Notes under the pieces: model-generated
What the model saw: only the letters and a program-made list of their open reading frames with translations
Told to the model about the DNA's origin: nothing
Databases searched by the model: none
In this document: one piece after another, positions 55,101 through 59,923 of the stretch
How the letters are laid out: the number at the start of each line of letters is the position of its first letter
Numbering within the stretch: the stretch's first letter is position 1
Source: Antennarius striatus
Taxonomy: Eukaryota; Chordata; Actinopteri; Lophiiformes; Antennariidae
DNA: 64,000 nucleotides
NCBI RefSeq assembly: GCF_040054535.1
Contig: NC_090791.1
Coordinates: forward strand, 18,761,327-18,825,326
Direction: 5' to 3'
Program-made: the position numbers and the translations under genes

Positions 55101-55866
55101 TAATCCCAAAATGAAAAATTCAGTTTTTTGTTTTGTTTGATAAATATTTGTCAAGTCGTTGTTTGTTTTTTTAATGGAAATCAGACAGGGCAACATGGGA
55201 ATGACAGGGCCATAATTCACTGCTAAACATTGTCCTATTATTTCTTCTTCGTATGCTGGACTGATCGACTTTGTCTGACAACGTCTTCCATTGTTTAAGA
55301 AAGTTTGGTCTTAATTCCTTTACCAATATTTTAGGTACCATTTATCGACTATATTTGGCAAATTGACAGTTTTCAGAGGTCTGTTTTGTTCTCCCATGTT
55401 TGATTAGAGTAAAAATAGATTGTCATTCTTCAAAGGAACTCATTTATGACTAATTGAGCCTAACTCAGCACTTTTTAAGAGATAATAAATGTAATGCATA
55501 AAGTTGTTAATTATTATTTTTAGTTATTATTATTAGCATTATTAATGTTGTAATTATTAGTGGTAATATTATTGCTGAAATGGGTTTGCCTTTGCCTTGA
55601 CGCATTTGTGAAAAGATTAATTGATGTAATTCTGCATTAATTATTAACAACTTTTTCCGTCTCTTACTAATGTGTTTCATCGTCCCATGTTTCCCCTCCT
55701 TGTCTTTCTTTTCAATCATAAACCAATATTGGATGGAATCTGGTGGATTGATCAACAGGACCAGAAATTAACAAAGAAGGAGATTCTGGCCAACTGGAAT
55801 ATGTTTGTGGGAAGCCAAGCAACCAATTATGGGGAAGATTTAACAAAGAGTCACGATGAACTTTGA
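46147..55866 (+). CDS. rcn3: Reticulocalbin-3, CREC-family ER calcium-binding protein
   Basis: RCN3 is a low-affinity Ca2+-binding chaperone of the secretory pathway; mammalian RCN3 supports collagen and surfactant processing. Coding exons: 46147-46364, 51571-51764, 52190-52362, 52710-52770, 52847-52938, 54771-54878, then terminal exon 55759-55866. Together they give 954 nt, 317 residues. A signal peptide covers about residues 1-20 ([18 protein letters not shown]). Six EF-hand loops start at 80, 116, 165, 202, 243 and 279. N130 is in an NTT sequon. The C-terminus is HDEL. The end [14 protein letters not shown] with HDEL fits RCN3 or RCN1 and excludes calumenin (HDEF). Synteny favours RCN3. 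An alternative last exon lies at 59816. ATG 46147 is chosen because it starts the signal peptide. Confidence 0.93.
46757..47227. mobile_element. Harbinger-type MITE, full copy
   Basis: A 471-bp element has terminal repeat ggccccgtccacacgataac and TAA on both sides (46754-46756 and 47228-47230). It lies in rcn3 intron 1, in the same orientation as 53617-54080. Confidence 0.85.
47305..47629. mobile_element. MITE, 'cagtgatccctt' family
   Basis: The right end 'cgagggattactg' precedes TA. The interior 'catgctattggttgacagtg' matches the other copies. The left end is blurred. Confidence 0.55.
47790..48670 (+). mobile_element. Tc1-like transposon with rearranged transposase
   Basis: The left end 'cactacctttcaaaagtttg' follows TA. 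From 48192 the frame reads [20 protein letters not shown], a Tc1 paired-type helix-turn-helix, interrupted by one stop. It continues through [18 protein letters not shown] to VKRRH near 48513. The following 160 bases are inverted. The right terminal repeat and most of the catalytic domain are missing. Confidence 0.8.
48511..48670 (-). pseudogene. Inverted piece of the Tc1 transposase
   Basis: The minus strand encodes [20 protein letters not shown], then [18 protein letters not shown] and TDKSKFEV. This is exactly the protein segment expected next after VKRRH on the + strand. The block therefore appears flipped in place, ending at the TC microsatellite. Confidence 0.75.
48673..48729. repeat. 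(TC)n microsatellite
   Basis: About 28 TC units, abutting the inverted Tc1 block. Confidence 0.95.
48730..49398. other. rcn3 intron 1, unassigned part
   Basis: No gene. Parts such as 'gctgcggtgaggcatcagtc' and 'tgctgtcgtgcctcattggt' may belong to a larger relative of the hAT MITE whose right end is at 49614. Confidence 0.35.
49399..49614. mobile_element. hAT MITE relative, right portion
   Basis: Closely matches 20640-20853, including 'taagctacactgtaggttca' and 'ccatgaacctcaccgc', and ends 'catgtcactg'. Confidence 0.7.
50383..50479. repeat. (GT)n microsatellite
   Basis: About 48 GT units in rcn3 intron 1. Confidence 0.95.
50695..50885 (+). repeat. tRNA-derived SINE fragment
   Basis: The head 'cggcaatgcctcagcagtag' and 'ctgctgggaggtgagcct' match the 6873-7247 element. 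Confidence 0.5.
50890..50990. repeat. hAT element end fragment
   Basis: Reads in reverse as 'tagtgatgggcagatgaagc', a hAT-type terminus. Confidence 0.45.
51437..51486. repeat. (GT)n microsatellite close to an rcn3 acceptor
   Basis: About 25 GT units end 84 bases upstream of the acceptor of coding exon 2 (51570). Confidence 0.95.
53137..53474. mobile_element. MITE, 'cagtgatccctt' family
   Basis: Shares 'gcgcattctattggctgac' and the terminal region 'cgcggattcctggaactta' with the other copies. Both ends are degraded. Confidence 0.55.
53617..54080. mobile_element. Harbinger-type MITE, full copy
   Basis: A 464-bp element flanked by TAA (53614-53616 and 54081-54083). It is very similar to 46757-47227 and in rcn3 intron 5. 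Confidence 0.85.
54084..54770. other. rcn3 intron 5, remainder
   Basis: A GATA-type simple stretch (54290-54400) and otherwise unassigned sequence. The last bases form the 'acttgttttgcag' acceptor. Confidence 0.4.
54879..55758. other. rcn3 intron 6, proximal part
   Basis: Contains poly-C (54992-55005), poly-T and an ATT/ATA-rich stretch near 55505-55570. No gene or named repeat. Confidence 0.4.
55759..55866 (+). CDS. rcn3: rcn3 terminal exon 7a
   Basis: After 'gattgatcaacag' 35 codons plus TGA complete the sixth EF-hand and give the usual RCN C-terminus ([18 protein letters not shown]) ending HDEL. EF-loop 6 is [12 protein letters not shown]: the usual glycine at loop position 6 is glutamine here. 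A poly(A) signal follows at 55980. Confidence 0.9.
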
Positions 55867-57180
55867 TACACTCAGAAACTAATTTCATTTTATGTAACAC
55901 TAGTATGAAAATTCAGGTACAGTGGGTTTGAGTTTTGGGGTTTGCAATGGGACTCCGTTAGGGAAGTGACTTTTTGGCAAATAAATATACACACGTTGAC
56001 TTGCGTATCTGCACAAGCATAGTACAGAAATATACTTTGTACACAAATACAGGTGATCATATGCACATATTAATTTGAGCTCAAAGAAAACATCAGTGTT
56101 AACATGTTTGTAAGTTTATTTTAAATATTTTGGAATTAGTAATAGACAACAATAGGAGTAATCTGTGGAGGTGTGCATCACAATTTTTTTTCTTTAATTT
56201 TAAATTAAGTGATGCATATCTCCACAGATTACTACTGTTATTGTCTGTTAAAATAGGATATCCCAAATAATTGAAATAAAATTACAAACGAATGAATTAA
56301 GACAACATGGTTCAATACGTCTGTGGAATGTAAGTCACCAGGATATTAACATTTGCTGCAAAAATCTTTACATAATGTTAGAAAGTATGAAAACAATATT
56401 GAAGAGGACAAAAGATGACTTCTTTGTTTTTTATAAGTTGGAATTTCTAATAAAGTACTTTTTCTACGCGTTTGAATTTTATCAAAAGCACTCTTGTAGT
56501 CAGTGTTATTACAATATAATTACTCATTTAAAAAAATAATCAGTTGTATATCATTATCTTTTTGTGACTTAGTATGCTGAAGAGGTTTAAAAACAATATT
56601 TCATAAGTTGACAATATTTCCAAAGGTACAATGAAAGTCGCTCCGCAGTATAAATCGCATCAGCCAAAAAATCCATAACCAAGAAGAATAAAGCCGTTTT
56701 AAGTCGCACTGGACTGTAAGTCACCTTTTTTTTTTGGGGGGGGGGTGGGATGTATTGAAACAATACATGTTAACAAACCCACTTGTAGTGGATGCATTCA
56801 CCTATTAATCGAGAAATGGGCTTTGGCCATATCTCGAACATCTATTTCATGGTCAGTAAGGGAGGTCCTGGATGAGATGACCCTTGCCCATCAGTAAGCG
56901 TTCAGTGCTAGCGCTGCTTACAACTGTAGTGTCGGCGGATGGTGAAGCACCCCAGTGAAAACAATTGCAGTGTCCGGTTAGATCATAAACAATAAAATAA
57001 TTTAAGAGGTTAGAAAGTTAAGAAGTGGTTAAGCAGCGGGAGCAAGTTGCATCAGTGTTATTCAGTTATTCACAGATATTCAGATAACTAATTTCTGCCG
57101 CTCAATTGCCGTTTTTGGCTGAATATTTCACTACTTTCACCTTGTAATCTGCAGAATATAATTTTGGGGGGGAGAAATTT
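55867..57180 (+). other. rcn3: rcn3 isoform-a 3' UTR and following intronic sequence
   Basis: AATAAA at 55980 and again near 56274 could end isoform a. The rest is AT-rich. A long inverted repeat (56116-56280) and a MITE-like fragment (56630-56720) are the only structures seen. Confidence 0.5.
56116..56280. repeat. Long imperfect inverted repeat (fold-back)
   Basis: Arms include 'agtaatctgtggag' (56158-56170) against 'ctccacagattact' (56220-56233), with further pairing outward to about 56116 and 56280. The loop is T-rich, about 30 bases. Most likely a small fold-back MITE. Confidence 0.75.
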
Positions 57181-57184
57181 GTAT

Positions 57185-59050: not shown

Positions 59051-59422
59051 TACGGTAATCCTGCGCGTATTCATGCTTCAACATGCCCGGCTTCACTACG
59101 TTGCGGATTTTTAGTAGGTAGGGGCATGATACTGTATACGCATGCTATTGGCTGACAGCATCGGGAAGTGCTCTGCATTCCATAAGTCTCGGAACGCAGC
59201 GCACTTCTGTGTATTAAACACTTTGCAACACTTCAAACAATCTATAAACATGTGGAACAAGGAAATACAGATATAAGGTGGTTTGATATCAGTATGGGGA
59301 GGGTTCATAAACGTTTAATCTACCGTAAGTAATAAAATAAAGAGTTTGTCGCTATATTGCAAAATTTTGTTTTTTGTGGGTGGTCCTGTAACGCATTAAC
59401 CGCAAGTAACATTTGATTACTG
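59051..59422. mobile_element. MITE, 'cagtgatccctt' family
   Basis: Contains 'gcatgctattggctgacag' and ends 'tttgattactg' before TA. It lies about 390 bases upstream of the second terminal exon. Confidence 0.55.
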
Positions 59423-59815
59423 TATTGCTAAACAAAGCAGATTCTTTTTGCAAAAAAATTTATTTTGGTGAATTATCAATGATGGTGCATTCTTTATCAT
59501 ATCCACATCATATTTATGTGTGGCCCACAGTAATCTTGAACACCCTCAAGCTATTTAAAAGTTTCAGTTGGAGCAATTCCTTTGTGTGAATCGTAATTTA
59601 GAAGTACAGATCTTGTCACTGGAGATGTGGCTGAAAGTAAAGTTTTACATGTATTATCATGTTCACTTTATGGTGTTCTAGCATCACCCTCAATTGAAAC
59701 ATCATAAAAAACATTTACCATTTCTAGTCTCCATGGTAGCATAATTCTTTTATGACATTTAAAAAGGCCACACATGCACACTTTTATTTCCTTATTTCCA
59801 TGCTGTCTATGTTAG

Positions 59816-59923
59816 GATGGCCAACTGACACTTTCTGAGCTACTTGCCAAAATGGACTACGTGAAGACCTGCACCATCACCGACTATGGAGCAATGAGGA
59901 TGGACGGCCATGATGAATTGTGA
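59816..59923 (+). CDS. rcn3: rcn3 alternative terminal exon 7b
   Basis: After acceptor 'tgctgtctatgttag' the frame continues from DTDK at the end of exon 6 with DGQLTLSEL, completing a canonical EF-hand loop (glycine at position 6, glutamate at 12). It runs 35 codons to HDEL and TGA, exactly the length of exon 7a. Shared positions with 7a: D1, L4-T5, E8, L10-A11, T-x-Y-G in the middle and HDEL at the end. Between them the sequence is quite different (MDYVKTCTITDYGAMRM). It is best explained as an old tandem duplication of the last exon, used as an alternative terminal exon. Open frame, correct phase and retained HDEL argue against a relic. Confidence 0.85.
   Translation, partial: DGQLTLSELLAKMDYVKTCTITDYGAMRMDGHDEL

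What the first reader, a model, noticed from the sequence alone, without database searches (positions are those of the whole stretch)
55759..59923. rcn3 has two full-length alternative terminal exons, both ending HDEL
Exons 7a (55759-55866) and 7b (59816-59923) have equal length (108 nt), the same phase, good acceptors, their own stops and own poly(A) signals. They share a residue pattern (D..LT..E.LA, T.YG, HDEL) but differ strongly between. Known: vertebrate CREC genes end with one [20 protein letters not shown] exon, and calumenin has internal mutually exclusive exons. I know of no described duplicate terminal exon in RCN3. Inference: a 3'-end switch makes two ER-retained isoforms with different C-terminal surfaces.
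Basis: partly seen in the sequence, partly recalled or inferred. Interest (0 to 1): 0.9.

Follow-up and report, generated by a model that had tools for sequence, protein, structure and literature searches.

The report
Two alternative endings for fish rcn3
A fish-like calcium-binding protein gene of the endoplasmic reticulum carries two related but very different last exons, so by choosing between them it could probably make two ER-retained proteins that differ in half a calcium site and in the tail; this has not yet been seen in RNA.

Summary
An rcn3-like gene has six coding exons up to 54878, then two candidate last exons, 55759-55866 (7a) and 59816-59923 (7b): both 108 nt, phase 0, after AG, ending HDEL-stop, with poly(A) signals downstream; either gives an open 317-residue protein. 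7b is not chance: ungapped, it is the best match to 7a in both strands (53; next 17), and in 20,000 neutral drifts of 7a to 51/108 identity none reached that score.

Best reading: a duplicated homologous terminal exon pair, chosen by splicing and poly(A) site. The swap exchanges the second half of EF-hand 6 (7a [12 protein letters not shown], 7b DTDKDGQLTLSE) and the tail; 7b adds the only cysteine outside the signal-like start. New here: the 7a acceptor has a 141-nt AG-free zone with TACTAAT at -89, the layout of distant-branch-point exons.

Not shown: any RNA or any other species (protein database off, genome search unanswered). A recently dead 7b is not excluded, and a possible decayed third copy lies in the 7b 3'UTR. 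The kind is known; this instance was in none of my searches.

The parts
46147..46364 (+). rcn3 coding exon 1 (ATG, signal-peptide-like start, judged by eye)
   Evidence: open reading and GT donor
51571..51764 (+). rcn3 coding exon 2 (EF-hand loops 1 and 2)
   Evidence: EF loops
52190..52362 (+). rcn3 coding exon 3 (EF-hand loop 3)
52710..52770 (+). rcn3 coding exon 4 (EF-hand loop 4)
52847..52938 (+). rcn3 coding exon 5 (ends after EF-hand 5 loop position 4)
54771..54878 (+). rcn3 coding exon 6, 108 nt; its last codons give EF-hand 6 loop positions 1-4 (DTDK); shared donor AAG|GTAGGT
55616..55756 (+). AG-free zone of 141 nt upstream of the 7a acceptor AG, with TACTAAT (branch-like A at -89) and a distal pyrimidine tract 55671-55714 (36 of 44)
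55759..55866 (+). terminal coding exon 7a, [39 protein letters not shown]
55980..55985 (+). AATAAA after 7a
59782..59815 (+). 7b pyrimidine tract (24 of 31 in 59782-59812) and acceptor; AG-free zone 47 nt
59816..59923 (+). terminal coding exon 7b, DGQLTLSELLAKMDYVKTCTITDYGAMRMDGHDEL-stop
60031..60084 (+). possible decayed third copy of the terminal exon (DFQGTCTNWHMFVTEYGY, no HDEL), in the 7b 3'UTR; suggestive only
60132..60137 (+). ATTAAA after 7b
60359..60376 (+). two AATAAA signals after 7b (60359, 60371), T/GT-rich sequence downstream by eye

Best explanation
7a and 7b are two homologous, mutually exclusive terminal exons of one rcn3 gene, born by an old duplication of the last coding exon. 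The donor after coding exon 6 is joined either to 7a or to 7b, about 4 kb further, each with its own stop and poly(A) signals. 7a is probably the default: it carries what I recall as the conserved RCN-type tail, and has a TACTAAT branch-like site with a long pyrimidine tract, but these lie about 45-90 nt from its AG, a layout open to repression. When 7a or its poly(A) site is blocked, the compact acceptor of 7b is used. The product swap replaces EF-hand 6 loop positions 5-12, the exiting helix and the tail while keeping HDEL; isoform B gets a canonical Gly6 loop and one cysteine. Shown: anatomy, homology, past constraint on 7b, acceptor layout. Inferred: use in RNA, default and direction of the switch, calcium and disulfide consequences.
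For: Same phase, stop, HDEL and EF-loop continuation. 7b is the top ungapped match to 7a in both strands outside 7a. Neutral simulation from 7a to 51/108 identity: 0 of 20,000 reach score 53 (best 50); 3 reach 14 identical positions, 2 keep HDEL-stop. In-frame TAG right before 7b, so only splicing can give the peptide. No intact upstream EF-hand exon found between 7a and 7b or to the window end, so rcn3 exon 6 is the only partner seen. Pfam EF-hand scores are higher for isoform B than A (EF-hand_7 94.0 against 87.5, EF-hand_1 82.1 against 74.6, EF-hand_5 57.1 against 44.6 bits). Acceptor anatomy; 7 of 3,831 + strand AG gaps in the window are 141 nt or longer. PMC1431707 (passages) links large AG-free zones with distant branch points and more cassette splicing.
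Against: No RNA evidence. No other species compared: the protein database was off and the search of the window's own genome did not complete. 7b shares only 13 of 35 residues with 7a. Neutral drift of today's 7b to 100/108 identity still leaves frame and HDEL-stop intact in 28.8% of 5,000 runs, so recent loss of use would not show. A possible decayed third copy at 60031-60084, if real, shows that copies of this exon can die here. A long AG-free zone is not proof of a distant branch point: PMC1431707 says some are unrelated to splicing, and within the rcn3 span 3 of 766 AG gaps reach 141 nt. The interval holds a reverse-transcriptase fragment and other repeats.
Confidence: 0.72

Rival explanations
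1. 7b is a relic: a once-used alternative terminal exon, or the last piece of a decayed tandem copy, no longer spliced in this species but still intact because the loss is recent.
For: No transcript evidence; neutral drift to 100/108 leaves frame and HDEL-stop intact in 28.8% of 5,000 simulated copies; a fragment matching 7a at 18 of 19 bases and reading NWHMFV.TEYG without an HDEL end lies in a frame that starts 107 nt after the 7b stop, as a decayed third copy would (3 of 300 shuffles reach its DNA score).
Against: Acceptor, frame, EF loop, HDEL-stop and poly(A) signals of 7b are all intact at once although its divergence from 7a is old. No remnants of rcn3 exons 1-6 found beside it, though a strongly decayed one could be missed.
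Confidence: 0.18
2. Both are spliced, but the 7b form is low-level noise tolerated because it still ends HDEL and folds.
For: A weak local tract at 7a (5 of 14 pyrimidines) could leak to a compact acceptor downstream without any regulated function.
Against: Motif-level retention at 47% DNA identity implies long selection for the peptide.
Confidence: 0.06
3. 7b is the terminal exon of a separate, partly unseen CREC gene and is not spliced to rcn3 exon 6.
For: It differs from 7a about as paralogues might (13 of 35 residues).
Against: Such a gene would need EF-hand exons upstream of 59816 on the + strand; none found between 55867 and 59815 by tblastn or by ungapped sliding. The phase fits the rcn3 donor.
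Confidence: 0.03
4. 7b is a chance open stretch that happens to resemble 7a.
For: Short (35 codons); tblastn of 7a alone against the window gives it E 0.003 only.
Against: Score 53 against next best 17 over both strands of 64 kb; homology begins exactly at an AG acceptor and ends at a stop after HDEL.
Confidence: 0.01

Closest known systems
[quoted passage not shown] its example is human capping protein beta)
   Same: Similar length, same phase, sequence homology, each with its own stop and poly(A) site; choice by splicing/poly(A) site rather than strict mutual exclusion.
   Different: Here the pair lies in an ER calcium-binding protein and its border cuts an EF-hand loop; similarity is low (13 of 35). 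Use in transcripts is not shown here.
Alpha-actinin EF-hand exons (discussed in PMC9177970 section 17)
   Same: Duplicated exons that exchange part of a calcium-binding domain; distant branch points are said to be frequent in such genes.
   Different: There, duplicated exons are described as often separated by short introns; the rcn3 pair is terminal, about 4 kb apart, with separate poly(A) signals.
Exons with distant branch points, such as alpha-tropomyosin (PMC1431707)
   Same: Long AG exclusion zone with a TACTAAC-type site and pyrimidine tract at its upstream side.
   Different: No branch point is mapped for 7a. In tropomyosin the branch location enforces exclusion (title of a cited paper); 7a has no downstream donor, exclusion would follow from its 3' end.
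Calumenin (CALU) isoforms
   Same: Same CREC family with reported splice isoforms and a variable exon 2 (PMC12516920, passages).
   Different: Variation described there is at exon 2; here it is the last exon.

Membership tests
CREC family / RCN3 | signal sequence, six EF-hands, C-terminal HDEL, 328 residues, seven-exon gene (PMC12516920, passages) | tested here: met
   317 residues; six EF-like loops at 80, 116, 165, 202, 243, 279; HDEL end; seven coding exons; EF-hand Pfam hits. Signal peptide judged by eye only.
CREC family / RCN3 | orthology to RCN3 rather than RCN1 | tested here: inconclusive
   No relatives could be aligned. A PDZ-encoding ORF (29124-29483; LIN7-like by recall) and an RD/RS-rich ORF (16389-17147, SNRNP70-like by recall; no Pfam hit) lie in the window; that these genes lie near RCN3 in human is recalled.
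Homologous 3'-terminal exon pair | similar length, same phase, sequence homology, own stops | tested here: met
Homologous 3'-terminal exon pair | both exons found in transcripts | not testable with these tools
   no transcript data held
[quoted passage not shown]
   both end in a stop with poly(A) signals; no intact rcn3 exon found after 7b in the window
Distant-branch-point exons | AG exclusion zone of 100 nt or more with branch-like site and pyrimidine tract on its upstream side | tested here: met
   7a: 141 nt, TACTAAT with A at -89, tract 36 of 44. The loose pattern YTNAY matches eight sites in the zone (-139, -135, -119, -112, -93, -89, -80, -8); -89 was picked by eye as nearest to TACTAAC.
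Distant-branch-point exons | branch point mapped experimentally | not testable with these tools
   needs lariat mapping

The most novel reading that the evidence does not exclude
An old fish (or wider vertebrate) switch in which a repressible distant-branch-point exon and a downstream duplicate exchange half of EF-hand 6 of reticulocalbin 3, turning a cysteine-free ER calcium protein with a non-canonical sixth loop into one with a canonical loop and a single reactive cysteine, so that calcium affinity and disulfide-linked partners differ by tissue.
Probability: 0.3. Interest if true: 0.65.

Novelty: new member of a known kind. Interest (0 to 1): 0.45.

Why it matters
If used, it gives the CREC family a natural experiment: two otherwise identical ER proteins that differ only in the second half of EF-hand 6 and the tail. 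That would make the role of the last EF-hand of RCN3 testable in vivo, and adds a case where exon duplication tunes a calcium site at a gene's 3' end rather than inside it.

Tried and rejected
Protein homology search, the decisive comparative test, could not be made: the shared database was switched off. A scan of viral contigs with exon 6 end plus 7b (8 pattern matches) and of bacterial/archaeal genome contigs with exon 6 end plus 7a (59 pattern matches) confirmed no relative; by their descriptions these collections are not fish, so this says nothing about 7b. Solved structures: isoform B matched 199 distinct sequences, of which the 60 shown are calmodulins and other EF-hand proteins (calcineurin B, a calcium-dependent kinase, engineered fusions), none named CREC; 7b alone gave one hit at E 1.2.

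Chance resemblance and a separate CREC gene were considered and rejected. Limits: the sliding of upstream exons was ungapped and on the + strand only, and a strongly decayed exon could be missed. RNA looping across 7a by inverted repeats was looked for; of 17 pairs in 54879-60450 those spanning 7a rest mainly on T or C runs and were not pursued. Which CREC paralogue 7b resembles most was not tested, since it would have needed recalled sequences.

Literature: eight full-text searches. Listings were complete for (11 papers; 13; 1); capped for (12 of 184; 8 of 46; 10 of 1,791; 10 of 31; 10 of 521, none of the ten holding 'rcn3'). No listed title or abstract start describes a duplicate terminal exon in RCN3. 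Five papers opened: PMC9741552 on human tandem duplicated exons (term search of the main text only: CALU, RCN, calumenin 0 occurrences), PMC1431707, PMC12516920 and PMC3228551 (passages), PMC9177970 (passages and section 17). The library lacks most subscription papers, and no supplements could be read.

For that reason the relic rival went from 0.17 to 0.18 and the best reading from 0.75 to 0.72; the other rivals were scaled so that the odds add to one.
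Full report
Check of the observation. On the + strand six coding exons (46147-46364, 51571-51764, 52190-52362, 52710-52770, 52847-52938, 54771-54878) with AG/GT borders give 846 nt in frame. Adding 55759-55866 or 59816-59923 gives two proteins of 317 residues that differ only in the last 35, both ending HDEL. Coordinates, equal length, equal phase, stops and poly(A) signals in the finding are correct. The terminal peptides share 13 of 35 residues plus the stop: D..LT..E.LA, T.YG, HDEL. 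DNA identity is 51 of 108, highest at second codon positions (23 of 36), then first (15) and third (13), as expected from selection on the protein. Of the 13 shared residues six use a different codon and seven the same. Equal length alone is weak evidence, since coding exon 6 is also 108 nt in phase 0.

More than chance. The 7a peptide slid without gaps over both strands scores 186 on itself, 53 on 7b and at most 17 elsewhere (mean about -43, s.d. about 13). The first codon of 7b follows an in-frame TAG that is the acceptor itself, so the homology starts exactly where an exon would. Letting 7a drift without selection to 51/108 identity, 0 of 20,000 runs reached score 53 (best 50); 3 reached 14 identical positions, 3,279 stayed open and 2 kept HDEL-stop. 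So 7b was kept by selection on its peptide for most of its history. The limit: from today's 7b, drift to 100/108 leaves frame and HDEL-stop intact in 28.8% of 5,000 runs, to 90/108 in 6.2%. A recently abandoned exon would look the same.

One gene, perhaps a dead third copy. tblastn of both isoforms and of each terminal exon over the window at E up to 10 finds the rcn3 exons; hits elsewhere have E 0.45 or worse. Ungapped sliding of the six upstream exons on the + strand shows no copy between 7a and 7b or after 7b (best 16 against self scores of 104-373). One weak hit deserves mention: at 60052-60081, in the 7b 3'UTR, the DNA reads NWHMFVTEYG, like 7a [14 protein letters not shown] with four residues missing (E 0.45). 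There CCAACTGG.ATATGTTTGT matches 7a at 18 of 19 bases, the best local DNA match to 7a in the tiled scan of both strands; 3 of 300 shuffles of that stretch reach its score, and its gapped protein score (39) is only just above the best elsewhere apart from 7b (36). The same frame runs back to AG|GAT at 60031, the start phase of 7a and 7b, but no HDEL follows. It may be a decayed third copy; it is not proven. The 7a-7b interval also holds a reverse-transcriptase fragment on the - strand (RVT_1, E 3.9e-13) and other repeats, which may account for part of the spacing (inference).

What the switch changes. The border lies after position 4 of the EF-hand 6 loop. With 7a the loop reads [12 protein letters not shown], with 7b DTDKDGQLTLSE; five other loops are shared. 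Position 6 is usually glycine in canonical EF-hands (established knowledge), so 7b has the canonical form and 7a departs from it; Pfam EF-hand scores are higher for isoform B (for example EF-hand_5 57.1 against 44.6 bits). The exiting helix and tail differ, HDEL stays. Isoform B has a cysteine at 301; the only other cysteine, in either isoform, is at 11 in the signal-peptide-like start. If that start is removed, isoform A has no cysteine and isoform B one, which could form a mixed disulfide in the ER (inference). EF-hand loops split by introns near their N-terminal part are common (PMC9177970 section 17).

How the choice may be made. Its AG-free zone is 141 nt, against 19-74 for the other six. 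In the whole window 7 of 3,831 + strand AG gaps are as long; within the rcn3 span 3 of 766 are, so such gaps do occur here without a known splicing role. At -89 stands TACTAAT, followed by a tract with 36 pyrimidines of 44; seven other loose branch matches lie in the zone, six at -139 to -80 and one at -8. PMC1431707 (passages) estimates distant branch points in about 1/160 to 1/400 human introns, reports more cassette splicing for zones of 100 nt or more (P = 0.002), names alpha-tropomyosin and alpha-actinin as verified cases, and warns that some large zones are unrelated to splicing. I infer that 7a is a default but repressible exon and that 7b, with a compact acceptor, is used when 7a is blocked. 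A post hoc observation of unknown worth: the 7b acceptor tract (59779-59804) is complementary at 20 of 26 positions to the A-rich stretch at the 7b poly(A) signals (60343-60368); 0 of 100 shuffles of the downstream stretch reach this, but the pair was picked from 17.

Relation to the known. Homologous 3'-terminal exons with the look of mutually exclusive exons are a described class (PMC3228551, passages: human capping protein beta is its 3' example; there 14 of 101 terminal exons annotated as used in a mutually exclusive manner share the features). Strict mutually exclusive exons are internal, so that label is not met. Exchange of EF-hand exons is known in alpha-actinin (PMC9177970 section 17). 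CALU splice isoforms and a variable exon 2 are reviewed in PMC12516920 (passages). None of the eight literature searches listed a duplicate terminal exon in RCN3, but five of the listings were capped and the library is partial. So: a new member of a known kind, in a family where I found no report of it.

Open points. Expression, conservation and dN/dS could not be tested: the protein database was off and the genome search did not complete.

Noticed in passing
60031-60084: Possible decayed third copy of the terminal exon (NWHMFV.TEYG; 18 of 19 bases shared with 7a) in the 7b 3'UTR.
   Followed up: partly
54771-54878 and 55759-55866: Coding exons 6 and 7a are both 108 nt in phase 0 and both begin at position 5 of an EF-hand loop (EF5, EF6), so the last exons look like repeated EF-hand modules.
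   Followed up: no
56140-56250: Inverted repeat (42-nt arms, 86% complementary, 27 nt apart), MITE-like, just downstream of the first 7a poly(A) signal.
   Followed up: no
53160-53410 and 59080-59348: Diverged direct repeat (76-79% in pieces) in the intron before exon 6 and before 7b; a similar copy near 47330-47560 was seen by eye only.
   Followed up: partly
46760-47230 and 53620-54090: Two copies of an element starting with GGCCCCGTCCACAC in rcn3 introns, seen by eye; likely transposon.
   Followed up: no
57713-58540 (-): Open reverse-transcriptase fragment (RVT_1) inside the 7a-7b interval.
   Followed up: yes
59779-59804 with 60343-60368: 7b acceptor tract complementary (20 of 26) to the A-rich poly(A)-signal stretch; could mask the acceptor or be chance.
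   Followed up: partly
1081-3183 (-): 700-codon open frame that reads like a LINE (endonuclease and reverse transcriptase, judged by eye); possibly a young element.
   Followed up: no
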